A stretch of 64,000 nt of DNA from Mycolicibacterium moriokaense (lineage in GTDB: Bacteria > Actinomycetota > Actinomycetes > Mycobacteriales > Mycobacteriaceae), in assembly GCF_010726085.1 (NCBI RefSeq), contig NZ_AP022560.1:4154001-4218000 (forward strand). The letters run 5' to 3'. Position numbers and translations under genes: made by a program. This document shows positions 16,518 through 29,867 of this stretch, in pieces. How positions within the stretch are numbered: position 1 is the first letter of the stretch; the number at the start of each line of letters is the position of its first letter. The notes beneath the pieces were generated by a model, which saw only the letters and a program-made list of their open reading frames with translations, was not told the origin of the DNA and did not search any database.

Positions 16518-17240
16518 TCAGTCCAGGAATCCGTGCAGCAGCGTGGCCGAACCTTCGACGTGGGCCCGCATCGCGGTCGCCGCCCCCTCACAGTCGCCCG
16601 CGAGGATCGCCATCACGACGGCCTCGTGCTGTTCGTCGGAGTGCGCGATGTTGCGCGGCAGCAACGGAATCTGGTCCAGCAGACCGTTGAGCCGCATCCG
16701 GTTCTCCGCGACCAGCGGCACCAGCGACGGCGACCCGGCCGCCTCGGCGATCGCCAGGTGCAACCGCGAATCCAGGCGCCGATAGTCGTCAGGCGCCGCA
16801 CCACGAACATCGGACAGCCGTGCCCACAACTCTTCCCGCTCCGCGGCGGTCAGTGTCCGGCTGGCCGCCATCCGTGCCGCGCCCACCTCCAGAATCTCGC
16901 GCAGACGCAGCGCGTCGTCGATGTCCGCGCGCGACACCCCGGCAGTGCCACCGGTCTGGCGCGGCAGTTCCTCGGCGAGGAAGGTCCCGCCGTAACGGCC
17001 CCGACGCGACACGAGATAGCCCGCGTCGGCCAGCGACTTGATGGCCTCCCGCACGGTGTCGCGGCTGACGCCGAGCCGAGCGGCGAGTTCGCGTTCAGGA
17101 GGCAGCGATTCACCGGGCTGGAGCACGCCGAGCCGGATGGTCTGCAGCAGGCGCCCAACGGTGTCCTCGAACGCATTACCCGGCCGCACCGGGCGCAGCA
17201 GCGCCTCGCTTGCGAGTGGTACGTCGGGATCCGCGGCCAT
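16518..17240 (-). CDS. GntR-family regulator, FadR/FCD subgroup
   Basis: 240 residues. The N-terminal winged helix (~20-90) contains ESLPPERELAARLGVSRDTV and the wing SRRGRYGGTFL. The C-terminal FCD domain (~105-235) carries the metal/ligand ligands: D and H in DSRLHLAIAEAAG, H in SDEQHEAVV and H in MRAHVEG. It follows the SDR by 14 bases at the end of the glnA4-amidotransferase-aldC-SDR operon, so it most likely controls that operon and the divergent permease, with a small amine-derived or organic acid as effector (inference). The candidate binding sites are the ACCTTTG boxes at 21676-21757. Confidence 0.87.
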   Translation of the reverse strand: MAADPDVPLASEALLRPVRPGNAFEDTVGRLLQTIRLGVLQPGESLPPERELAARLGVSRDTVREAIKSLADAGYLVSRRGRYGGTFLAEELPRQTGGTAGVSRADIDDALRLREILEVGAARMAASRTLTAAEREELWARLSDVRGAAPDDYRRLDSRLHLAIAEAAGSPSLVPLVAENRMRLNGLLDQIPLLPRNIAHSDEQHEAVVMAILAGDCEGAATAMRAHVEGSATLLHGFLD

Positions 17241-17254
17241 GGTCTAGGACACGA

Positions 17255-18028
17255 TCAGAGGGGGGTCACATAATGGCCACTGATGCCACCGTCGACGAGG
17301 AACGACGAGGCGGTGATGAACGACGCGTCGTCGCTCGCTAGAAACGCCACCGCGGCGGCGAGTTCCTCCGGTTCGGCGAACCGTCCGACCGGGACGTGCA
17401 CCAGCCGTCGCGCCGCCCGCTCCGGGTCCTTGGCGAACAACTCCTGCAGCAGCGGCGTGTTCACCGGTCCGGGGCACAGCGCGTTCACCCGGATGCCCTG
17501 GCGTGCGTACTGCACCCCGAGCTCGCGGGACATGGCTAAAACGCCACCCTTGGAAGCGGTGTAGGAGATCTGCGACGTCGCCGAACCCATCACCGCCACG
17601 AACGACGCGGTGTTGATGATGGAGCCCTTCTGGTTCGGCACCATGTGCCGCAGCGCCGCCTTGCAGCACAGGAACACCGACTTCAGGTTCACGTCCTGCA
17701 CCCGCTGCCACGCGTCCAGACCGGTGACCTCGATCAGGTCGTCCTCGGGCGGCGAGATACCCGCGTTGTTGAAGGCGATGTCGACCGATCCGTGCGTCTT
17801 GGCCGCGGTGTCGAACAACGTGTCGACGGCCACCTCGTCCGAGACATCAACCGGCACAAAGGTTCCGCCGAGTTCATCGGCGACCTCCTTGCCCGTGATC
17901 GGGTCGATGTCGCCGATCACGACGGTCGCGCCCTCGGCGTGCATGCGTCGTGCGGACGCGAGCCCGATTCCGCTGGCGCCGCCGGTGATGACGGCGACCT
18001 TGCCGGCCAACCGCTGTGTCAGATCCAT
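17255..18028 (-). CDS. Short-chain dehydrogenase/reductase in the glnA4 cluster (Rv2857c-like)
   Basis: 257-residue classical SDR. NAD(P) binding TGGASGIGLASA at ~15-26, an acidic GDIDP after beta-2 (favouring NAD), NNAG (~88-91), catalytic Ser (~140) and the S-Y-T-A-S-K active site (~155-160). Its ATG shares one base with the aldehyde dehydrogenase stop (TGATG), so it is translationally coupled. In the ethanolamine reading of this operon it would oxidise the hydroxyl of gamma-glutamylethanolamide to the aldehyde handled by the next enzyme. This is inference; the family does not reveal the substrate. Confidence 0.9.
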   Translation of the reverse strand: MDLTQRLAGKVAVITGGASGIGLASARRMHAEGATVVIGDIDPITGKEVADELGGTFVPVDVSDEVAVDTLFDTAAKTHGSVDIAFNNAGISPPEDDLIEVTGLDAWQRVQDVNLKSVFLCCKAALRHMVPNQKGSIINTASFVAVMGSATSQISYTASKGGVLAMSRELGVQYARQGIRVNALCPGPVNTPLLQELFAKDPERAARRLVHVPVGRFAEPEELAAAVAFLASDDASFITASSFLVDGGISGHYVTPL

Positions 18029-19392
18029 CAGGCCTCCTGGATTGCGTAGAAAACGTTCTTGGTTTCGGTGAAGGACAGCGGTGCGTCCGGCCCGAGCTCG
18101 CGGCCAAGACCCGACTGTTTGAATCCGCCGAACGGGGTGTTGTAGCGCACCGAGGAGTGCGAATTCACCGACAAATTACCGGATTCCACTGCACGCGACA
18201 CCCGCAGCGCCCTGGAGAGGTTGTCGGTCCAGATCGACCCCGACAAGCCGTACGGGGTGTCGTTCGCGAGAGCAATGCCATCGGCCTCGTCGTCGAACGG
18301 CAGCACCACCACGACCGGTCCGAAGATCTCCTCACGGACGGTGCGGTCGTCCCGCTGCGGCGTCAGCACGGTGGGCGGGAACCAGTACCCAGGCCCCGAA
18401 GGCGCATCGCCGCGGAATGCAACGGGCGCGTCGTCGGGCACGAACGAGGCGACGCTGTTCCAGTGGGCCTTCGACACCAGCGGGCCCATCTCGGTGCCCT
18501 CGGAGCGCGGATCGCCGACGACGACACCCTTGACCGCGGGCTCGAGCAGCTCCATGAACCGGTCGTATACGGTGCGCTGCACCAGGATTCGACTGCGCGC
18601 ACAGCAGTCCTGGCCGGCATTGTCGAACACCCCGTACGGGGCGGTCGCGGCCGCCTTCTCCAGATCGCAGTCGTCGAACACGATGTTGGCGCTCTTGCCA
18701 CCCAACTCCAGCGTGACGCGCTTGACCTGGGCGGCCGCACCGGCCATCACCCGGGTGCCGACTTCGGTCGAACCGGTGAACACGATCTTGCGCACATCGG
18801 GATGGGTGACGAATCGCTCGCCGACGACCGAACCCTTACCGGGCAGTACCTGGAAGAGACCGGCGGGCAGTCCCGCGTCGGCCGCGAGCTCCCCCAACCG
18901 GATCGTCGTCAACGGGGTCCATTCGGCGGGCTTGAGCACGACGGCGTTACCGGCGGCCAGGGCGGGTGCGAAACCCCACGACGCGATGGTCATCGGGAAG
19001 TTCCACGGAGTGATGACGCCGACGACGCCGAGCGGTTCGTTGAATGTGACGTCGAGCCCGCCGGCTACCGGAATCTGCTTGCCCGACAGTCGCTCCGGGG
19101 TCGCCGAGTAGTACTGCAGGACGTCACGGACGTGACCCGCTTCCCACTTGGCGTTGCCGATCGGGTGCCCCGAGTTGGCGACTTCGAGCTCAGCCAGCTC
19201 GTCGACGTGCGCGTCCACCGCCGCGGCGAAGGCCCGCAGCGCCGCCGCTCGTTCGGCCGGTGCCAACCGCGCCCATTGCTTCTGTGCCGCCTTGGCGCGC
19301 GCGACGGCGTCGTCGACGCCCGCCTCATCGGTCTGCTCTACCTTGCGCAGCAGATCCTCGGTCGCGGGATTGATGACGTCGGAGGTGCTCAA
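18028..19392 (-). CDS. aldC: NAD-dependent aldehyde dehydrogenase (AldC)
   Basis: 454 residues, as the Rv2858c protein (455). TTG start at 19392, sharing TTGA with the amidotransferase stop and preceded by AAAGGGT. A start in the longer upstream frame would lie inside the neighbour. Rossmann region FTGSTEVGTRVMAGAA, catalytic Glu in LELGGKSANIVF, and catalytic Cys in GQDCCARSRI, where a second adjacent Cys is noteworthy. The C-terminal EIFGPVVVV is conserved. In context it would oxidise a gamma-glutamyl aldehyde to the acid, as PuuC does in polyamine breakdown. Co-transcribed with its neighbours. Confidence 0.93.
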   Translation of the reverse strand: MSTSDVINPATEDLLRKVEQTDEAGVDDAVARAKAAQKQWARLAPAERAAALRAFAAAVDAHVDELAELEVANSGHPIGNAKWEAGHVRDVLQYYSATPERLSGKQIPVAGGLDVTFNEPLGVVGVITPWNFPMTIASWGFAPALAAGNAVVLKPAEWTPLTTIRLGELAADAGLPAGLFQVLPGKGSVVGERFVTHPDVRKIVFTGSTEVGTRVMAGAAAQVKRVTLELGGKSANIVFDDCDLEKAAATAPYGVFDNAGQDCCARSRILVQRTVYDRFMELLEPAVKGVVVGDPRSEGTEMGPLVSKAHWNSVASFVPDDAPVAFRGDAPSGPGYWFPPTVLTPQRDDRTVREEIFGPVVVVLPFDDEADGIALANDTPYGLSGSIWTDNLSRALRVSRAVESGNLSVNSHSSVRYNTPFGGFKQSGLGRELGPDAPLSFTETKNVFYAIQEA

Positions 19393-20126
19393 GCACTTAC
19401 CCTTTCGTTTGCATACGTCGCTGCGGCCTGGACGGCAGCCGCGAACAGTCTCAGGTCGTCCAACCGCTCCTCTGGATGCCACTGGACGGCCAATACGAAG
19501 TTGTCGCCAGGAATCTCCACCGCCTCGATGACGCCGTCGCCGTCCTGTGCGCTGACGATCAGGCCCTGGCCCAACCTGTCGATGGCCTGATGGTGGTAGC
19601 ACTGCGCGTCCGACGACTCGCCGATGATCGATGCCAGTCGCGTGCCCGGCACGGTGCGCACCGACGACGTCGAGAACACCGCGTTGCCCTGCTGGTGGTG
19701 GGTGTGGCCGATGACGTCGGGCAGATGCTGGTGCAATGTACCGCCGAGCGCGACGTTGAGCACCTGGGCGCCGCGGCAGATGCCCAGCACCGGCATACCG
19801 CGCCGAATCGCACCGCGGACCAACGCGAATTCGAAGGCGTCACGCATCCGGTTGTCTTCCACCGGCTCGTCGGTGGCGGGGTGCCGGTCCTGGCCGTAAC
19901 TGGCGGGCCCCACGTCGCGTCCGCCGGTGATGATCAACCCGTCGAGCCCGTCGAGCACCCTCTCGGCGATGTCATCGTCGACCGGCTGCGGGGGCAACAG
20001 CACGGAGATGCCCCCGGCGAGCCCGACACCCTCGAAGTAGATCGCGGGCAGGAAGCTCGCACGAACGTCCCACACACTGGTCTGCGCCTGCTGCAGGTAG
20101 GTGGTCAACCCGATAACGGGCCGCAC
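19389..20126 (-). CDS. Class I glutamine amidotransferase-like gamma-glutamyl hydrolase (peptidase C26, PuuD-like)
   Basis: 245 residues from the GTG at 20126. The catalytic Cys is in GICRGAQVLNVALGG (~105) and the His/Glu pair in VQWHPEERL near the C-terminus; the glycine loop GLIITGGRDVGP (~70) forms the oxyanion hole. PuuD relatives cleave gamma-glutamyl amides to glutamate and the free amine or amino acid. The open frame extends upstream through a long palindrome, but those residues are not conserved, so the GTG just inside is preferred. M. tuberculosis Rv2859c is annotated longer, so the N-terminus is uncertain. It is the second gene of the glnA4 operon. Confidence 0.87.
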   Translation of the reverse strand: MRPVIGLTTYLQQAQTSVWDVRASFLPAIYFEGVGLAGGISVLLPPQPVDDDIAERVLDGLDGLIITGGRDVGPASYGQDRHPATDEPVEDNRMRDAFEFALVRGAIRRGMPVLGICRGAQVLNVALGGTLHQHLPDVIGHTHHQQGNAVFSTSSVRTVPGTRLASIIGESSDAQCYHHQAIDRLGQGLIVSAQDGDGVIEAVEIPGDNFVLAVQWHPEERLDDLRLFAAAVQAAATYANERVSA

Positions 20127-20135
20127 CCCTTCACC

Positions 20136-20195
20136 GCGAGCAGACGCCAAACGCCCCTTTTTGGCCCCATTTTGGGGGTGTTCACGTCTGCTCGC
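20136..20195. repeat. GCGAGCAGACG palindrome, copy A
   Basis: Perfect 11-bp terminal inverted repeats GCGAGCAGACG / CGTCTGCTCGC enclose an imperfect inner stem of C-rich and G-rich runs. It fills the 88-base gap between glnA4 and the amidotransferase gene, both on the minus strand. Related copies lie at 29802-29867 and 42327-42389. Confidence 0.8.
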
Positions 20196-20214
20196 CGGGG
20201 AACTGGCCGCAGAA

Positions 20215-21582
20215 CTAGAGCCGCTCAAAGCCCCGCACCCTTTCCCAATCCGTGACCGCGGCGTTGAACGCGGTCAGCTCGACACGGGCATTGTTGAGGT
20301 AGTGCTCGACGACGTCGTCGCCGAACGCCGCCCGCGCCACCTCGGACTTCTCGAACAGCGCCGCAGACTCAGCCAGAGTCGTCGGAAGCCGTTCGGCGCC
20401 ACTGGTATACGCGTTTCCCTCCATCGGGTCGGGCAGCTCGAGTTCGCGCTCGATCCCGTACAGGCCACCGGCGATCAGTGCCGACACCGCGAGGTACTGG
20501 TTGACGTCTCCGCCCGGCGCCCGGTTCTCCATCCGCATGCCATGGCCGTGCCCGACGACCCGCAGCGCGCAGGTCCGGTTGTCCAGACCCCACGCGATCG
20601 CGGTCGGAGCGAAACTGCCGTCGACGAATCGCTTGTAGGAGTTGATGTTCGGCGCATAGAACAGCGACAGCTCACGCAGCGTCGCAAGCTGGCCGGCGAT
20701 GAAACTGCGGAACATCGGCGACATACCCAACGGATCGGACTCGTCGGCGAACACCGCGGAACCGTCGTCGCCGCGGAACGAGATGTGGATATGACAGCTG
20801 TTGCCTTCGCGCTCATCGAATTTCGCCATGAACGTCAGGCTCTTGCCGTGCTGATCGGCGATCTCTTTGGCGCCGTTCTTGTAGATCGTGTGGTTGTCGC
20901 AGGTGACCCGGGCGTGGTCATAGCGGAACGCGATCTCCTGCTGGCCGAGGTTGCACTCCCCCTTGACGCCTTCGCAGTACATGCCCGCGCCGGCCATACC
21001 CAGCCGGATATCGCGCAGCAGCGGCTCCATCCGCGTCGAGGCCAGCATCGCGTAGTCGACGTTGTAGTCCGTCGCCGGAGTCAGCCCGCGGTATCCCTTC
21101 GCCCAGGCGTCGCGATAGCCGTCGTCGAACACCATGAACTCCAGTTCGGTGCCGACGTACGGCACGAGGCCCTGCTCGGCCAGCCGGTCGATCTGCCGGT
21201 TGAGGATGCTGCGCGGCGCCTGGGTGACGGGGTTTCCGTCGATCCACGACAGATCGGCCATCACCAGCGCGGTACCGGGCAGCCAGGGCAGCAGCCGAAG
21301 GGTCGAGAAGTCGGGCGTCATCACCATGTCGCCGTAGCCGGTCTCCCAACTCGAGATCGCATAACCGTCGACGGTGTTCATGTCGACATCGACGGCCAGT
21401 AGGTAGTTGCAGCACTCCGCGCCGTGCGCGGCGACGTCCTCGACGAAGAGCCGCGCCGACACCCGCTTACCGGTCAGCCTGCCCTGCATATCGCAGAACG
21501 CGACGATGACGGTGTCGATATCGCCCGCGTCCACGAGACCTTCGAGGTCGGCCTGCGACAACATGCCCGATGCGGCGCTCAT
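20215..21582 (-). CDS. glnA4: GlnA4: glutamine-synthetase-family gamma-glutamylamide synthetase
   Basis: 455 residues, GS-fold ligase (M. tuberculosis GlnA4 457). The conserved GS beta-grasp and catalytic motifs are recognisable: GTELEFMVFDD (metal-binding Glu), CNLGQQEIAFRYD, NSCHIHISFRG (ATP/metal His), and the NRTCALRVVGHG arginine-bearing loop. The N-terminal DMQGRLTGKRVSARLF replaces the usual GlnA1 sequence, and no GlnA1-type Tyr adenylylation loop was seen. In Streptomyces the GlnA4 type is a gamma-glutamylethanolamide synthetase and GlnA2/3 types act on polyamines. The neighbouring ethanolamine-type permease, SDR, AldC and hydrolase support ethanolamine here. First gene of its operon; divergent promoter region upstream. 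Confidence 0.92.
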   Translation of the reverse strand: MSAASGMLSQADLEGLVDAGDIDTVIVAFCDMQGRLTGKRVSARLFVEDVAAHGAECCNYLLAVDVDMNTVDGYAISSWETGYGDMVMTPDFSTLRLLPWLPGTALVMADLSWIDGNPVTQAPRSILNRQIDRLAEQGLVPYVGTELEFMVFDDGYRDAWAKGYRGLTPATDYNVDYAMLASTRMEPLLRDIRLGMAGAGMYCEGVKGECNLGQQEIAFRYDHARVTCDNHTIYKNGAKEIADQHGKSLTFMAKFDEREGNSCHIHISFRGDDGSAVFADESDPLGMSPMFRSFIAGQLATLRELSLFYAPNINSYKRFVDGSFAPTAIAWGLDNRTCALRVVGHGHGMRMENRAPGGDVNQYLAVSALIAGGLYGIERELELPDPMEGNAYTSGAERLPTTLAESAALFEKSEVARAAFGDDVVEHYLNNARVELTAFNAAVTDWERVRGFERL

Positions 21583-21675
21583 TACCAGCGACCCTGCCCT
21601 TCATCAGTGTTCACGTGCATGGATCGACCCTCAGCGGTCGAACGACGGGAAGACGAATAGTCAACCATTGAATCA

Positions 21676-21757
21676 ACCTTTGAAGCTGTCCCACCCGGTT
21701 GTTCGTCACGGCCTTTTACGCAATTGTCACGTTCAAAGGTATGACACCAGACCTTTG
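21676..21757. promoter_or_regulatory. Divergent glnA4/permease control region with three ACCTTTG boxes
   Basis: In the 222-base gap: ACCTTTGAA at 21676-21684, its inverse TTCAAAGGT at 21732-21740, and ACCTTTG at 21751-21757. The last two form a perfect CAAAGGT-N10-ACCTTTG inverted repeat. A permease promoter candidate is ATGACA (21741-21746) with 18 bases to TATTCT (21765-21770), so the inverted repeat brackets the -35. The GntR or a nitrogen regulator could bind here. Confidence 0.55.
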
Positions 21758-21804
21758 GCGAGTCTATTCTCCGTATGCCCCCAACCCCAAGAAGGAGCAC
21801 CCGC

Positions 21805-23337
21805 ATGGCCGACGAAAAGATGAAGAGCTCGGGCGGCGTCACCTACAGCCAAGCCGGCGAGGGCTACTTCGAGAAGCGGCAGCTCAAACGGACCGCCGGC
21901 TTCTGGGGCCTGTGGGGCATCGGCATCGCGGCCGTCATCTCCGGCGACTTCTCCGGGTGGAACTTCGGCATCGGCGCGGCCGGGTGGGGCGGCCTGGCGA
22001 TCGCCTCGATCCTCATCGTCATCATGTATTTCGGCATGCTGTTCTCGATCGGCGAGATGTCGGCGGCCATGCCGCACACCGGCGGCGCCTACTCGTTCGC
22101 CCGCGCGGCGATGGGGCCGTGGGGCGGGTTCGTCACCGGCTTCGCCGAGACGATCGAGTACGTGTTCACCACCGCCGTCGTCGTGTTCTTCTCGGCGGCC
22201 TACGCGAACGCCGTCACCACCGACCTGTTCAACCTGTCGCTGCCGATGTGGCTGTGGTGGATCATCCTCTACGCGATCTTCGTGGGGCTGAACTCCTGGG
22301 GCGCAGAGATCTCCTTCAAGTTCGCGCTCGTGGTGGCGGTCATCTCCATCGGCATCCTGGTCCTGTTCGGTGTCCTCGCCGTCGCCAACGGTGCGGTCGA
22401 CTTCAGCAAGCTCTTCGACATCGCCCCCGACCCGGCCGCGGCGGGTTCGTCGACGTTCCTTCCGTTCGGCTGGGTGGCGATCCTGTACGCGCTCCCCTTC
22501 GCCATGTGGTTCTTCCTCGGCATCGAGGAACTCCCCCTGGCGGCCGAGGAAGCCCACGATCCCGCGCGCGACATTCCGAGGGCGGGCATCTGGGGTCTGA
22601 TCTCGCTCGTGGGCTGCGGCGCGATCGTGTTCTTCCTCAATCCCGCGGTCACCGGTTCCGAGGCGCTGGGCGGGTCCGACGAACCGCTGCTCGACGGTTT
22701 CCGGGCGTTCCTGCCCGCCAACCTGGCCGCAGTTCTCTCGGCGTTCGCGCTGATCGGCCTGCTGGCCAGCCTGCAGGGCATCATGTACGCCTACGGCCGC
22801 AACATGTACTCGTTGAGCCGCGCCGGCTACTACCCGAAGACGTTGTCGCTCACCGGATCCCGGCAGACGCCGTATGTGGCCTTGCTGGCGGGTGCGGTGA
22901 TCGGATACATCGCGTTGCTCATCGTCAACTACAACGAGGGTGCGGGTGCGGTCGTCCTGAACATCGCCGTCTGGGGCGCGGTCCTCGCGTATGGCCTGCA
23001 GATGATCTCGTTCGTGCTGCTGCGCCGTAAGTTCCCGAACGCGAAGCGTCCATGGATCAGTCCCACCGGAAACTGGGGCGCGATCGTGGCGCTCATCATC
23101 GCCGCGATCACGTTCGTCGGCGTGCTCGTCAATCCGAGCTACCGTCCCGCCGTCATCGCGATCGTCATCTTCTACGTGTTCGGTCTGCTGGTGTTCGGGT
23201 TCTACGGCAGGCACCGCCTGGTGCTCTCCCCCGAGGAGGAGTACGCGGTCACCGGCGGCCTGCACGGGTACGACCCGGCGTCCGAGGGGCTTGGCGGCAC
23301 CATCGAGGACGAGATCCTGAAGGGCCATACCGAGTAG
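21805..23337 (+). CDS. APC-superfamily ethanolamine permease (Eat-like)
   Basis: 510 residues, about 12 hydrophobic helices, plasma membrane. The start of helix 1 shows the Eat-type GDFSGWNFGIGAAGWGG, and helix 2-3 GEMSAAMPHTGGAYSFARAA is an APC hallmark. The IEELPLAAEEAHDPARDIPRA loop matches remembered Eat/amino-acid permeases. ATG at 21805 follows AAGAAGGAG at ideal spacing. The C-terminal ~40 residues are cytosolic and acidic. Ethanolamine is the likely substrate by subfamily resemblance. Amino acids or polyamines are alternatives. It is divergent from glnA4 with a shared control region, which fits an uptake-plus-catabolism regulon. Confidence 0.85.
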   Translation: MADEKMKSSGGVTYSQAGEGYFEKRQLKRTAGFWGLWGIGIAAVISGDFSGWNFGIGAAGWGGLAIASILIVIMYFGMLFSIGEMSAAMPHTGGAYSFARAAMGPWGGFVTGFAETIEYVFTTAVVVFFSAAYANAVTTDLFNLSLPMWLWWIILYAIFVGLNSWGAEISFKFALVVAVISIGILVLFGVLAVANGAVDFSKLFDIAPDPAAAGSSTFLPFGWVAILYALPFAMWFFLGIEELPLAAEEAHDPARDIPRAGIWGLISLVGCGAIVFFLNPAVTGSEALGGSDEPLLDGFRAFLPANLAAVLSAFALIGLLASLQGIMYAYGRNMYSLSRAGYYPKTLSLTGSRQTPYVALLAGAVIGYIALLIVNYNEGAGAVVLNIAVWGAVLAYGLQMISFVLLRRKFPNAKRPWISPTGNWGAIVALIIAAITFVGVLVNPSYRPAVIAIVIFYVFGLLVFGFYGRHRLVLSPEEEYAVTGGLHGYDPASEGLGGTIEDEILKGHTE

Positions 23338-23418
23338 GAGTCGCAGGTCGGCTCCGCAGTAGACGCACGTCACATCCGCCCAGGTTTCAACATTGGCACC
23401 GTGGGTAATGTCCCTGGC

Positions 23419-25218
23419 GTGTGCGGAGCCGCCGGAGAGGTGCGTCTCGACGACCAAAAACCTGATGTCACCGCGGTGTCGGCGATGGCGGAAGCCATGT
23501 CCCCCCGAGGTCCCGACGGTGCCGGAGTGTGGTCACAGGGCAGGGTCGCGTTAGGCCATCGACGCCTCAAGATCATCGACCTGACCGAAGCCGGGGCACA
23601 GCCCATGGTCGACTCGGAGCTCGGGCTGTCCATCGCCTGGAACGGCTGCATCTACAACTACAAGGAGCTGCGCCAGGACCTCATCGACCGCGGTTACCGG
23701 TTCTTCTCCACCAGCGACACCGAGGTGCTTCTCAAGGCCTACCACCATTGGGGCGACCGGTTCGTCGATCAGCTGAAGGGCATGTTCGCCTTCGCAATCG
23801 TGGAGCGTGACAGCGGCCGGGTGCTGCTCGGCCGCGACCGGCTCGGCATCAAGCCGCTGTATCTCACCGAGAACTCCGCGCGCATCCGCTTCGCATCGTC
23901 ACTTCCCGCACTGCTCGCGGGCGGCGGGGTCGACACCCGCATCGACCCGATCGCGCTGAACCATTACCTGTCCTTCCACTCCGTCGTGCCGCCGCCGCGC
24001 ACGATCCTGCGCGGTGTGACGAAGGTGCCGCCCGCCTCGACCGTCGCGATCGAGCCCGACGGCCGCAGGACCACCACGACCTACTGGGAACCCGACTTCA
24101 CCAGGCGCGCAGACACCGCCGACTGGTCCGAACGCGACTGGGAGGACGCCGTTCTCGAGTCGCTGCGGCTGGCCGTCAAGCGCCGGCTGGTCGCCGACGT
24201 GCCGGTGGGCTGCCTGCTCTCGGGCGGTGTCGACTCCAGCCTGATCGTCGGGTTGCTTGCGGAGGCGGGCCAAACCGGGCTGTCCACGTTCTCGATCGGC
24301 TTCGAATCCGTCGGTGACGTCAAGGGCGACGAGTTCAAGTACTCCGACATCGTCGCCGAGCGGTTCGGCACCGACCACCACCAGATCCGGATCGACACCG
24401 ACCGGATGCTGCCCGCCCTGGACGGCGCGATCGGCGCCATGAGCGAGCCGATGGTCAGCCACGACTGCGTCGCCTTCTATCTGCTCAGCCAGGAAGTGGC
24501 CAAGCACGTCAAGGTGGTGCAGTCCGGCCAGGGTGCCGACGAGGTGTTCGCGGGCTACCACTGGTATCCGCCGATGGCGGACGCGACATCGCTTGACGAC
24601 GCCGTCGCCAAATACCGCACCGCGTTCTTCGACCGCGACAAGACCGGCATCGCCGAGCTCGTCACGCCGGACTATCTCGCCGAGGGCGATCCGAGCGCGG
24701 GGTTCGTCACCGAGCGCTTCGCCCGTCCCGGCGCCGAAACCGGCATCGACCGCGCACTGCGGCTGGACACCACGGTGATGCTGGTCGACGATCCGGTCAA
24801 ACGCGTCGACAACATGACGATGGCCTGGGGCCTGGAGGGTCGGGTCCCGTTCCTCGACCACGAGCTCGTCGAGCTGGCTGCGACCTGTCCCCCCGAACTG
24901 AAGATCGCGCACGACGGCAAGGGTGTGCTGAAAGAGGCTGCCAGGAGGGTGATTCCAGACGCGGTCATCGATCGCCCCAAGGGGTACTTCCCCGTCCCCG
25001 CCCTGACTCACCTCGAGGGTCCGTACCTGGACATGGTCCGCGACGCCCTGTACGCACCGGCCGCCAAGGAGCGCGGGCTCTTCCGGCCGGAGGCGGTCGA
25101 CCGGCTGCTGGCCGATCCGAACGGGCGACTGACCCCGCTGCGGGGCAACGAACTCTGGCAGCTGGCGCTGCTCGAGCTCTGGTTGCAACGGCACGGCATC
25201 AACGGGACGGCGGCGTGA
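23419..25218 (+). CDS. N-acetylglutaminylglutamine amidotransferase (asparagine-synthase family)
   Basis: 599 residues. The GTG at 23419 is chosen because it puts Cys at position 2 (MCGAAGEV), the obligatory nucleophile of class II glutaminases; six further upstream codons are open but would bury that Cys. The glutaminase domain (~1-215) includes SPRGPDGAG and HRRLKIIDL. The synthetase domain has the PP-loop CLLSGGVDSSLIVGLL (~270) and QSGQGADEVFAGYHWYP. The family member paired with a GNAT/ATP-grasp ligase makes the osmoprotectant N-acetylglutaminylglutamine amide. The four-base overlap (GTGA) with that ligase supports the assignment. No strong ribosome site was seen. Confidence 0.92.
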   Translation: MCGAAGEVRLDDQKPDVTAVSAMAEAMSPRGPDGAGVWSQGRVALGHRRLKIIDLTEAGAQPMVDSELGLSIAWNGCIYNYKELRQDLIDRGYRFFSTSDTEVLLKAYHHWGDRFVDQLKGMFAFAIVERDSGRVLLGRDRLGIKPLYLTENSARIRFASSLPALLAGGGVDTRIDPIALNHYLSFHSVVPPPRTILRGVTKVPPASTVAIEPDGRRTTTTYWEPDFTRRADTADWSERDWEDAVLESLRLAVKRRLVADVPVGCLLSGGVDSSLIVGLLAEAGQTGLSTFSIGFESVGDVKGDEFKYSDIVAERFGTDHHQIRIDTDRMLPALDGAIGAMSEPMVSHDCVAFYLLSQEVAKHVKVVQSGQGADEVFAGYHWYPPMADATSLDDAVAKYRTAFFDRDKTGIAELVTPDYLAEGDPSAGFVTERFARPGAETGIDRALRLDTTVMLVDDPVKRVDNMTMAWGLEGRVPFLDHELVELAATCPPELKIAHDGKGVLKEAARRVIPDAVIDRPKGYFPVPALTHLEGPYLDMVRDALYAPAAKERGLFRPEAVDRLLADPNGRLTPLRGNELWQLALLELWLQRHGINGTAA

Positions 25219-27011
25219 CTGTCGGAGCCGGAAGGCCGGCGACATCCAGCGCCGTGGGCTCCGACCACACCGAGGCGATCACGCTCGGTCTGCACGACGC
25301 GTCCCCGCAGCATCTGGTCGACGCGATGGCCGACGATGTGGTCATCGAAATGGGCTGGGGCCGACTGATTTTCGGGCAGACTTTCGCAGATCCGGCCAAG
25401 CTCGCCGAAGTGCTGCGGCACGAAGGCCCGGGTCGCCGGGACATCTGCATGTACGCCCGCGAACCGCACGTCCTGGTCTCGATGGCGCCCGCCGAGTTGT
25501 TCATCGACCCCAGTCACACCTACCGGCTCAGGTTCTCCGAGAACGACGAACCGCCACCGGCCCCCACCGGATTCACCGTTCGCTCACTCGAACGACCCGA
25601 AGAGGCCGACGAGATCAACCGGGTCTACATGCGCTGCGGCATGGTGCCGGCACCCGTGGAGGTGCTGTGGGAAAACAGCGAAAAACGAGACGCGCTGGAC
25701 TATCTCGTGGCCGTGCGTGACGACGACGGATCGCTGGTGGGCACCGTGACCGGCGTCGACCATAAGCGGTTGTTCGACGACCCCGAGAACGGTTCGAGCC
25801 TGTGGACGCTGGCCGTCGACCCCACGACCAGCCTGCCCGGCGTCGGTGCTGCGCTCACCCGGGCACTCGCCGCGCTCTACCGCGAACGCGGCCGGGCCTA
25901 CATGGATCTGTCGGTGGCCCACAACAACACCGCCGCCATCAGGCTGTACGAGAAGCTGGGCTTCGAGCGCGTTCCGGTGATGGCCGTCAAGCGCAAGAAC
26001 GCCATCAACGAACCGCTGTTCACCCATCCGCCCGAGACCGTCGACGACCTGAACCCGTACGCGCGGATCATCGCCGACGAGGCGATGCGTCGCGGGATCT
26101 GGGTCGAGGTCCTCGACGCCGAGGCCGGCGAGATGCGGCTGTCCCACGGCGGGCGCAGCGTCATCACCCGAGAATCGTTGTCGGAGTACACCTCCGCGGT
26201 GGCGATGGCACGATGCGACGACAAGAGGCTGACCCGACGACTGGTGGCGGAGGCCGGAATCCAGGTGCCGAAGGGTCGGCTCGCCACGTTCGACGAGCAG
26301 GACCACGCGTTCCTGGAAGAGGTCGGCGACGTCGTCGTCAAGCCCACCCGCGGCGAACAGGGCAAGGGCATCACCGTCGGCGTCGACGGCCCCGAGGAAC
26401 TGGATGCCGCATTGCGGCGGGCCCGTGAGGAGCATCCCGCGGTGCTGATCGAGCAGCGCGCTCCCGGCGACGACCTGCGGCTGGTGGTGATCGACGGCAA
26501 GGTGGTGGCGGCGGCGATACGCCGGCCCGCCGAGATCCTCGGCACCGGCCACCACACCATCCGCGAACTCATCGAGGCGCAGAGCAGGCGCAGGGCGGCC
26601 GCCACCGGCGGCGAGTCCCGAATCCCCATCGACGCCGTGACCGAGGCGACGGTCGCCGAGGCCGGGTACTCCTACGACGACGTGCTGCCCGAGGGCGAGA
26701 GCCTGCGGGTGCGCCGGACGGCGAACCTGCATCAGGGCGGCACGATCCACGATGTGACCGCGACGGTGAACCCGCACCTGTGCGAGGTCGCGGTCCGCGC
26801 CGCCGAGGCCATCGGCATACCCGTGACGGGTATCGACCTGTTGGTGCCCGACGTCACCGCGCCTGAGTACGTGTTCATCGAGGCGAACGAACGCCCCGGG
26901 CTGGCCAACCACGAGCCGCAGCCCACCGCAAAGGCTTTCGTCGACTTCCTCTTCCCGGGCAGCCCGGCACTACCGCAGGCATGGACGCCCGACGAGGCAC
27001 CCACCCCGTAG
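25215..27011 (+). CDS. ngg: N-acetylglutaminylglutamine synthetase (GNAT + ATP-grasp)
   Basis: 598 residues. A GNAT domain (~115-265; AVDPTTSLPGVGAALTRALA and SVAHNNTAAIRLYEKLGF) is fused to an ATP-grasp ligase (~300-590; VVKPTRGEQGKGITVGV, VLIEQRAPGDDLRLVVIDG and the metal site VFIEANERPGL). The GNAT part would acetylate glutamine and the ligase part join a second glutamine; the upstream amidotransferase then amidates the dipeptide. GTG start overlapping the previous stop. The pair is a compatible-solute operon known from rhizobia and pseudomonads. It is placed directly behind the permease with an 81-base gap, so its own promoter is possible. It ends two bases short of a convergent hydrolase gene. 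Confidence 0.92.
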   Translation: MTVGAGRPATSSAVGSDHTEAITLGLHDASPQHLVDAMADDVVIEMGWGRLIFGQTFADPAKLAEVLRHEGPGRRDICMYAREPHVLVSMAPAELFIDPSHTYRLRFSENDEPPPAPTGFTVRSLERPEEADEINRVYMRCGMVPAPVEVLWENSEKRDALDYLVAVRDDDGSLVGTVTGVDHKRLFDDPENGSSLWTLAVDPTTSLPGVGAALTRALAALYRERGRAYMDLSVAHNNTAAIRLYEKLGFERVPVMAVKRKNAINEPLFTHPPETVDDLNPYARIIADEAMRRGIWVEVLDAEAGEMRLSHGGRSVITRESLSEYTSAVAMARCDDKRLTRRLVAEAGIQVPKGRLATFDEQDHAFLEEVGDVVVKPTRGEQGKGITVGVDGPEELDAALRRAREEHPAVLIEQRAPGDDLRLVVIDGKVVAAAIRRPAEILGTGHHTIRELIEAQSRRRAAATGGESRIPIDAVTEATVAEAGYSYDDVLPEGESLRVRRTANLHQGGTIHDVTATVNPHLCEVAVRAAEAIGIPVTGIDLLVPDVTAPEYVFIEANERPGLANHEPQPTAKAFVDFLFPGSPALPQAWTPDEAPTP

Positions 27012-29801: not shown

Positions 29802-29867
29802 CCCGCGAGCAGACGTGAAAACCCCCATTTCGGGGGCAAATAGGGGGTTTTCACGTCTGCTCGCGGG
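29802..29867. repeat. GCGAGCAGACG palindrome, copy B (25-bp perfect arms)
   Basis: Arms at 29802-29826 and 29843-29867 are perfectly complementary over 25 bases around a 16-base loop. The left arm runs from CCCGCGAGCAGACG through a GTGAAAA segment to CCCCC. It fills the gap between mapB and cobQ, both minus strand. It is the most perfect of the three copies and a potential terminator or RNA structural element. Confidence 0.85.

What the first reader, a model, noticed from the sequence alone, without database searches (positions are those of the whole stretch)
16518..23337. Complete gamma-glutamylation pathway for ethanolamine (or a related amino alcohol)
Seen: glnA4, a PuuD-like hydrolase, aldC, an SDR and a GntR regulator in one overlapping operon, divergent from an Eat-like ethanolamine permease. 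Known: Streptomyces GlnA4 ligates glutamate to ethanolamine, and the classic polyamine Puu route needs an FAD amine oxidase (PuuB). Here no amine oxidase is present; instead an SDR, suited to oxidising an alcohol, precedes the aldehyde dehydrogenase. Inference: ethanolamine is taken up, gamma-glutamylated, oxidised to the aldehyde by the SDR and to gamma-glutamylglycine by AldC, then hydrolysed to glutamate and glycine. That would be a cobalamin-independent way to use phospholipid-derived ethanolamine, with all steps in one locus. M. tuberculosis keeps glnA4, Rv2859c, aldC and Rv2857c but, as far as I recall, not the adjacent permease.
Basis: partly seen in the sequence, partly recalled or inferred. 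Interest (0 to 1): 0.72.

Follow-up and report, generated by a model that had tools for sequence, protein, structure and literature searches.

The report
Ethanolamine-degrading operon in a mycobacterium
A mycobacterium carries a gene cluster that probably takes up ethanolamine, tags it with glutamate and turns it into glycine; the pathway was already proposed for Streptomyces, but the comparison adds a predicted DNA switch and shows that the uptake gene is often swapped or missing in relatives.

Summary
The genes are there as described: GntR, SDR, aldehyde dehydrogenase, C26 hydrolase and GlnA4 in one array, divergent from an Eat-like permease. The pathway idea is sound but not new: PMC6529630 describes the same gene set in Streptomyces, shows that GlnA4 makes gamma-glutamylethanolamide, and proposes the same later steps. 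The window is the mycobacterial counterpart: a Streptomycetaceae locus holds homologues of all six genes, and GlnA4 has the published ligand and pocket residues. EutB is absent.

New, within my searches:
(1) A predicted operator at 21733-21758, present before glnA4 in 66 of 70 loci with the GntR gene and 4 of 18 without, with one site in the genome. A degenerate form lies in 13 of 23 non-mycobacterial loci with a GntR and 0 of 30 without.
(2) The permease varies between Eat-type, another APC subfamily and none (at least 18 changes on a quick tree). Close sisters L072 and L085 differ by a clean swap.
(3) Ten more distant congeners have no permease beside glnA4.

Verdict: known pathway, useful regulatory prediction.

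The parts
20215..21582 (-). glnA4, predicted gamma-glutamylethanolamide synthetase (455 aa)
   Evidence: Gln-synt_C 332.9 bits; all 12 distinct published ligand residues of S. coelicolor GlnA4 plus the pocket Phe present. Most of the 12 are shared with paralogues; Glu259, Asp176 and in part Phe324 are the discriminating ones
19389..20126 (-). gamma-glutamyl amide hydrolase, peptidase C26 (PuuD-like); predicted gamma-glutamylglycine hydrolase. The longest ORF starts at 20228; the likely start is GTG 20126
   Evidence: Peptidase_C26 231.1 bits; below the PuuD equivalog cut-off; GICRG and WHPE motifs
18028..19392 (-). aldehyde dehydrogenase (aldC); predicted gamma-glutamylaminoacetaldehyde dehydrogenase
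   Evidence: Aldedh 523.5 bits; LELGGK and QDC motifs
17255..18028 (-). SDR dehydrogenase; predicted gamma-glutamylethanolamide dehydrogenase (NCBI model PRK06057 calls it 3-oxoacyl-ACP reductase)
   Evidence: 509.6 bits against cut-off 404; TGGASGIG, NNAG and YTASK motifs; solved chain 4wec E=1.5e-143
16518..17240 (-). GntR/FCD regulator; predicted repressor of the locus, probable counterpart of EpuRI
   Evidence: GntR and FCD domains; 50% identical to the GntR divergent from glnA4 in Embleya; Asp157, His161, His205 and His227 present, read as an FCD metal site from recalled knowledge
21805..23337 (+). Eat-like APC permease; predicted ethanolamine uptake
   Evidence: TIGR00908 345.6 bits, below cut-off 381.75; best of 9 matches in the genome
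21733..21758 (.). predicted operator of the GntR regulator in the divergent promoter, inverted repeat with 7-bp perfect arms and a 10-bp spacer
20136..20195 (.). 60-bp palindromic interspersed repeat between glnA4 and puuD; predicted stem-loop in the transcript

Best explanation
This is the mycobacterial form of the GlnA4-type ethanolamine utilisation cluster. Ethanolamine enters through the Eat-like permease. GlnA4 uses ATP to join it to the gamma-carboxyl of glutamate. The SDR oxidises the alcohol of gamma-glutamylethanolamide to the aldehyde, AldC oxidises that to gamma-glutamylglycine, and the C26 hydrolase releases glycine and regenerates glutamate. No cobalamin enzyme or microcompartment is needed. 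The GntR protein represses both divergent transcripts from the operator at 21733-21758 and is released when the substrate or a glutamylated intermediate is present. Shown by others, for S. coelicolor: GlnA4 activity and its need for growth on ethanolamine, repression by EpuRI, EpuRI binding to the glnA4 promoter. Inferred: every step in this organism, the SDR, AldC and hydrolase reactions, the permease substrate, the operator and the inducer.
For: Gene content. The Embleya locus has homologues of all six genes: 65% GlnA4, 67% AldC, 75% SDR, 50% GntR, 46% hydrolase and 39% permease identity. GlnA4: all listed metal, glutamate and ADP residues and Phe331 are matched at two constant offsets. Glu259 and Asp176 are shared with the Actinomycetota GlnA4s L118, L119, L120 and L126 and with none of five paralogues. 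Solved relative 5dm3 (E=7.4e-116) is recalled, not looked up, as Csal_0679 of C. salexigens, a species whose predicted glutamylation route PMC6529630 cites. Paracoccus L121, with a 51% GlnA4, has the gene order (RpiR-type regulator, FGase, TRAP transporter, GS, ALDH, alcohol dehydrogenase) of the Phaeobacter locus whose proteins rise on phosphoethanolamine (PMC10132767). In Paracoccus the alcohol dehydrogenase is of the iron type, not an SDR, which supports an alcohol-oxidation step. EutB absent from the genome. M. smegmatis grows on ethanolamine as N source (PMC4222082).
Against: Permease and hydrolase fall below the curated cut-offs of their namesake models, and the SDR meets the cut-off of a model with another name. 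Eleven of the 12 ligand residues are also kept in at least four of the five paralogues, so they say little about ethanolamine. Ethanolamine growth of M. smegmatis was GlnR-dependent, while PMC6529630 states that the glnA4 homologue is not GlnR-regulated, so another route could contribute. PMC2667176 cites work giving glutamine synthetase activity to all four M. tuberculosis glnA products; PMC9397018 says the opposite for glnA2-4. About half of the related loci have a permease of another subfamily here, substrate unknown. EpuRI bound eight promoter regions of S. coelicolor in EMSA (PMC8998196), which does not fit a one-site local regulator. PMC6529630 does not name the family of EpuRI (no GntR in its text).
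Confidence: 0.85

Rival explanations
1. Same enzymes, but the natural substrate is another small amino alcohol (for example 1-amino-2-propanol, alaninol or 3-aminopropanol), with ethanolamine a side substrate.
For: The gene set fits small amino alcohols in general. The permease scores below the ethanolamine-permease cut-off, and many relatives have a permease of another APC subfamily.
Against: S. coelicolor GlnA4 was specific for ethanolamine among the amines tested (PMC6529630). The distant Phaeobacter cluster responds to phosphoethanolamine. Ethanolamine is the abundant natural member of the class (general knowledge).
Confidence: 0.1
2. Puu-like polyamine or alkyl monoamine catabolism.
For: GlnA4, C26 hydrolase and aldehyde dehydrogenase resemble PuuA, PuuD and PuuC.
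Against: No amine oxidase among the six proteins. The PuuC (341.8 against 850 bits), PuuD (90.1 against 266) and gamma-glutamylputrescine synthetase (199.5 against 650) cut-offs are all missed. An SDR lies near glnA4 in 35 of 36 other Actinomycetota loci. The S. coelicolor glnA4 mutant grows on polyamines (PMC6529630).
Confidence: 0.03
3. GlnA4 is a spare glutamine synthetase, and the neighbours are an unrelated detoxification operon.
For: Work cited in PMC2667176 gives GS activity to GlnA4 of M. tuberculosis.
Against: The flap Glu of glutamine synthetases is Phe324 here, while paralogues L001 and L002 keep Glu. Linkage to SDR, ALDH and hydrolase persists across Actinomycetota.
Confidence: 0.02

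Closest known systems
GlnA4 ethanolamine utilisation cluster of Streptomyces (SCO1610-SCO1615; putative permease in S. venezuelae, S. pristinaespiralis and others), PMC6529630
   Same: GlnA4, SDR, aldehyde dehydrogenase, glutamine-amidotransferase-type hydrolase, local regulator, permease; same proposed chemistry
   Different: Gene order: in the window GntR ends the array and the permease is divergent from glnA4; in Embleya (Streptomycetaceae) GntR is divergent from glnA4, with permease and hydrolase behind it (L118)
Phaeobacter sp. MED193 ethanolamine locus (GGAH, EtoVWX, ETAGA, GAADDH, GETADH), PMC10132767
   Same: Predicted gamma-glutamylation, two oxidations and a gamma-glutamylglycine amidohydrolase
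   Different: TRAP transporter; in the like-ordered Paracoccus locus the hydrolase is an FGase and the alcohol dehydrogenase iron-containing
Csal_0679 of Chromohalobacter salexigens (the glutamylation route is cited in PMC6529630; that PDB 5dm3 is this protein is recalled)
   Same: GlnA4-like ligase in a predicted glutamylation route for ethanolamine
   Different: Ethanolamine-binding TRAP protein Csal_0678 (PMC10132767); a gammaproteobacterium (recalled)
E. coli Puu putrescine pathway
   Same: Ligase, aldehyde dehydrogenase and C26 hydrolase logic
   Different: FAD amine oxidase PuuB instead of an alcohol dehydrogenase; Puu model cut-offs missed
Eut ethanolamine ammonia-lyase pathway
   Same: Substrate
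   Different: Cobalamin-dependent; EutB absent from this genome

Membership tests
gamma-glutamylethanolamide synthetase (GlnA4) | Metal, glutamate and ADP residues listed for S. coelicolor GlnA4 | tested here: met
   All 12 distinct listed residues present at offset -10 (up to residue 276) or -7 (from 325). Weak as a discriminator: of the 12, only Glu259 differs in all five paralogues compared
gamma-glutamylethanolamide synthetase (GlnA4) | Ammonium-site residues replaced (Phe in place of Glu327; Asp186 in one of the published models) | tested here: met
   Phe324 and Asp176 in the window and in L118, L119, L120, L121, L126. Of five paralogues (of six other GS-family matches; the partial L007 was left out) two have Glu at 324, two Trp, one (L004) Phe; none has Asp at 176
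gamma-glutamylethanolamide synthetase (GlnA4) | Ligates glutamate to ethanolamine | not testable with these tools
   Among the papers read, shown by assay only for S. coelicolor (PMC6529630)
Streptomyces-type GlnA4 cluster | glnA4, SDR, ALDH, amidotransferase/C26 hydrolase, regulator and permease together | tested here: met
   six homologues in Embleya L118. S. coelicolor's own genes were not at hand
Eat ethanolamine permease (TIGR00908) | Score above the curated cut-off of 381.75 bits | tested here: not met
   345.6 bits. May work like an Eat permease, but not filed as a certified member
PuuD (NF008471) | Score above 266 bits | tested here: not met
   90.1 bits; filed only as peptidase C26
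Puu putrescine pathway | FAD amine oxidase PuuB in the operon | tested here: not met
   None among the six proteins
EpuRI-type regulator | Orthologue of SCO1614 | tested here: inconclusive
   50% identity to the Embleya GntR that sits where EpuRI sits, divergent from glnA4, and a shared operator form; SCO1614 itself was not compared and PMC6529630 does not state its family
EpuRI-type regulator | Represses glnA4 | not testable with these tools
   Shown for S. coelicolor (PMC6529630; EMSA in PMC8998196)
Eut pathway | Ethanolamine ammonia-lyase EutB in the genome | tested here: not met
   No match to PF06751; of 14 control genomes E. coli rings

The most novel reading that the evidence does not exclude
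The locus is a modular nutrient system. A fixed four-enzyme core is joined to an exchangeable uptake gene (Eat-type or TIGR00907-like APC) through one divergent operator, AWWGGT-N10-ACCWWT, read by an EpuRI-like GntR protein conserved from mycobacteria to streptomycetes. In the more distant congeners uptake and repressor have gone while the core is mostly kept, which would make it a constitutive recycler of ethanolamine from the cell's own phosphatidylethanolamine.
Probability: 0.45. Interest if true: 0.5.

Novelty: new member of a known kind. Interest (0 to 1): 0.36.

Why it matters
It supplies a testable operator for an EpuRI-like regulator: PMC8998196 shows EpuRI binding to promoters by EMSA, but the passages I saw name no EpuRI site. 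It gives mycobacteria a concrete B12-independent route for the phospholipid head group ethanolamine, with a genomic reason to suspect that some lineages use external and others only internal ethanolamine. The permease swap warns against inferring the substrate from one species' transporter.

Tried and rejected
Considered and rejected: polyamine (Puu) catabolism, Eut, spare glutamine synthetase (see rivals).

A first operator candidate, CAATAG-N4-CTATTG, matched many APC2-type loci but few Eat-type loci, and partly overlaps the left arm of the better element found.

Co-loss of permease and GntR looks strong in raw counts (L126 left out: permease intact, GntR present 50, absent 1; permease none or remnant, GntR present 14, absent 15). 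The tree-based test has too few independent events (7 pairs on supported branches, sign test median p 0.5), so I claim it only as a pattern. Operator against GntR presence likewise: 4 pairs, median p 0.25.

A paper search with the arm of the 60-bp repeat listed two papers that hold the 11-mer once each; I did not read them, so whether the repeat is described is open.

No structure was predicted and no protein-database search (search for homologous proteins) was run: the named and unnamed loci answered the question.

Limits. The 80 named loci are the best 80 of 484, so near relatives dominate. Of the 83 places listed I read 40 regions, picked by hand, plus 20; L118-L121 came from plasmid records. 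The tree is a quick one with 27 of 89 inner branches drawn open (support under 80), so the counts of 18 and 12 changes rest partly on weak branches. The operator pattern was drawn from 21 aligned upstream regions and its degenerate form was set, so searches are not fully independent tests. L126 is counted among the 70 and the 23, and lacks the element in both. In one search L126 is scored 'none' only because its Eat (65%) fell under my threshold; I corrected this.
Full report
WHAT IS THERE. The window lies in a 6.2 Mb single-contig genome whose GlnA4 is 97% identical to that of Mycobacterium barrassiae (L038). Catalytic motifs of the SDR, aldehyde dehydrogenase and hydrolase are visible in the sequence. 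AldC starts inside the puuD stop (4-nt overlap) and the SDR starts on the last base of aldC. glnA4 and the likely puuD start (GTG 20126) are about 88 nt apart. The N-acetylglutaminylglutamine genes follow at 23401-27011 (TIGR03104 and TIGR03103 above cut-off).

IS IT KNOWN. Yes, in outline. PMC6529630 (abstract, the sections on the GlnA4 model, EpuRI and biochemistry, part 1 of 2 of the discussion, and passages elsewhere) describes a conserved Streptomyces cluster of SDR, aldehyde dehydrogenase, glnA4, regulator, putative ethanolamine permease and glutamine amidotransferase. It shows GlnA4 to be a gamma-glutamylethanolamide synthetase (Km for ethanolamine 0.47 mM) required for growth in liquid ethanolamine medium, shows repression by EpuRI, and proposes dehydrogenase SCO1611, aldehyde dehydrogenase SCO1612 and amidohydrolase SCO1615 for the later steps. 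A permease from S. pristinaespiralis almost doubled biomass on ethanolamine. PMC9397018 (passages and one section) repeats the steps. PMC10132767 (passages) gives a Phaeobacter locus with the same predicted chemistry, whose proteins rise on phosphoethanolamine. PMC4222082 (passages) reports GlnR-dependent growth of M. smegmatis on ethanolamine. PMC11841054 (passages) says the function of GlnA4 of M. tuberculosis remains unclear.

IS THE WINDOW THE SAME SYSTEM. The twelve distinct metal, glutamate and ADP residues listed for S. coelicolor GlnA4, and Phe331, are all matched in the window protein at offset -10 up to residue 276 and -7 from 325. This alone is weak: most of the twelve are common to the glutamine synthetase family, and of the twelve only Glu259 differs in all five paralogues compared (Paracoccus L121 has Ala there). 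More telling are Asp176, in none of the five paralogues but in all five GlnA4s from other records (L118-L121, L126), and Phe324, which is Glu, Glu, Phe, Trp and Trp in the paralogues and Phe in those five GlnA4s. Embleya L118 has homologues of all six genes. Of 36 non-mycobacterial Actinomycetota loci with GlnA4 identity of at least 58% and both flanks of 6.5 kb (of 40 in that band), 35 have the SDR, 35 the aldehyde dehydrogenase, 31 the hydrolase, 31 all three, 22 a permease of one of two types (15 Eat, 7 APC2, none both), 21 the GntR, and none an iron alcohol dehydrogenase of the Paracoccus type. In the 45-58% band (10 of 13) SDR, aldehyde dehydrogenase, hydrolase and all three are found in 9, 6, 7 and 5. 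In Paracoccus (GlnA4 51%) an iron-containing alcohol dehydrogenase takes the SDR's place, an FGase the hydrolase's and a TRAP transporter the permease's, in the order of the Phaeobacter ethanolamine locus. This one swap between unrelated alcohol dehydrogenases is the best comparative argument that the step oxidises an alcohol. EutB is absent from the genome.

PERMEASE. Among 90 Mycobacterium-type loci (80 named, 10 unnamed congeners) the DNA upstream of glnA4 holds an intact Eat-type permease in 7, Eat cut by the contig end in 2, an Eat remnant in 1 (L048), a permease of a different APC subfamily (best model TIGR00907, 293 bits, below its cut-off) in 41, that APC plus a second Eat in 4, the second Eat alone in 1, none in 30, and is not observable in 4 (L126 left out). 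On a quick GlnA4 tree of 92 rows this needs at least 18 changes of type and 12 of presence; 7 independent pairs differing in presence lie on well-supported branches. L072 (Eat) and L085 (APC2) are sisters: their DNA is 94-95% identical on both sides (6110 and 5637 bp) and between these only the permease segment fails to align; the two proteins share only a weak local match (32% over 99 residues). In one further relative (G018) the Eat reading frame holds a stop, which could be a sequencing error. Ten more distant congeners (L166-L175, GlnA4 70-77%) have no permease at the locus. Eight of them show the full four-enzyme core, one contig ends inside puuD (L169), and L175 lacks the aldehyde dehydrogenase. 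GntR is absent in the eight where it could be seen. Two (L167, L171) have what look to me like PPE genes next door (by eye). Neither permease type was found elsewhere in eight of these ten genomes at E up to 1e-60; the other two have an Eat of 41% identity.

OPERATOR. Aligned upstream regions show an inverted repeat, CCAAAGGTCTGGTGTCCTACCTTTGG, between glnA4 and the permease. The core GGTNTGNTGTCNTACC, with at most 2 mismatches in 13 fixed positions, occurs in 66 of 70 loci that have the GntR gene. The four others are L043, L050 and L084 (3 mismatches) and L126 (5; not Mycobacterium-type). It occurs in 4 of 18 loci without GntR, the four forming one clade, and in 3 of 700 and 0 of 180 dinucleotide shuffles. 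It is found with either permease type and in most permease-less loci that keep GntR. The window's 20-bp version has one match at up to 3 mismatches in the whole genome, as expected of a local regulator. A degenerate form, AWWGGT-N10-ACCWWT with at most 2 of 12 mismatches, occurs in 13 of 23 non-mycobacterial loci that have a GntR of at least 100 bits within 6.5 kb, and in 0 of 30 without; shuffles give about 1%. PMC8998196 (passages) reports EpuRI binding by EMSA to eight promoter regions, glnA4's and its own among them; this wider reach speaks against a strictly local regulator in Streptomyces. No operator sequence for EpuRI appeared in the passages shown there or in PMC6529630, nor in the titles listed by a search for EpuRI (20 of 70 papers listed, most unrelated). 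I therefore take the operator to be a new prediction, within those searches.

WHAT IS SHOWN AND WHAT IS INFERRED. Shown here: gene content, relation to the Streptomycetaceae cluster, absence of EutB, conservation of the operator and its association with GntR (not significant when tested on the tree), exchange and absence of the permease. Inferred: substrate, each reaction in this organism, repression, inducer, and the idea that permease-less lineages recycle internal ethanolamine (proposed for S. coelicolor in PMC6529630). GntR keeps Asp157, His161, His205 and His227, which from recalled knowledge of FCD proteins suggests a metal-bound carboxylate ligand such as a gamma-glutamyl intermediate rather than ethanolamine itself; this is a guess.

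Noticed in passing
window 20136-20195, also 29805-29864: A 60-bp palindromic interspersed repeat (arms GCGAGCAGACG...CGTCTGCTCGC). 89 matches of a 22-base half at up to 3 mismatches genome-wide, 0 for the reversed-pattern control. In the window it sits between glnA4 and puuD and folds stably as RNA (-37.6 kcal/mol, z -3.6). Single-arm matches lie at the same junction in L040, L056 and L075, 3 of the 80 named loci.
   Followed up: partly
L039, L043, L059, L064, L073 upstream of glnA4: An inserted cassette of a second Eat permease, FGGY sugar-type kinase, glycerol-1-phosphate-dehydrogenase-like protein and a UTRA-type GntR beside the glnA4 array (families determined for L039 only): possibly another pathway sharing the site.
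   Followed up: partly
L126 (genome G308, another family of the same class): Same gene order as the window with GlnA4 76%, SDR 81%, Eat 65% identity although outside the order: possible horizontal transfer.
   Followed up: no
L119 (Arthrobacter sp. U41 plasmid, typed conjugative): glnA4-puuD-aldC-SDR array on a plasmid, near a choline-kinase-like gene, an amidase and a sodium:solute symporter: the pathway can be plasmid-borne.
   Followed up: no
window 23401-27011: N-acetylglutaminylglutamine amidotransferase and synthetase genes (osmolyte synthesis) directly behind the permease, near glnA4 in many relatives.
   Followed up: no
genomes G001, G012, G031, G036: Congeners whose best GlnA4 matches are only about 35% identical, so no orthologue was found; G007 has it in two pieces.
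   Followed up: no
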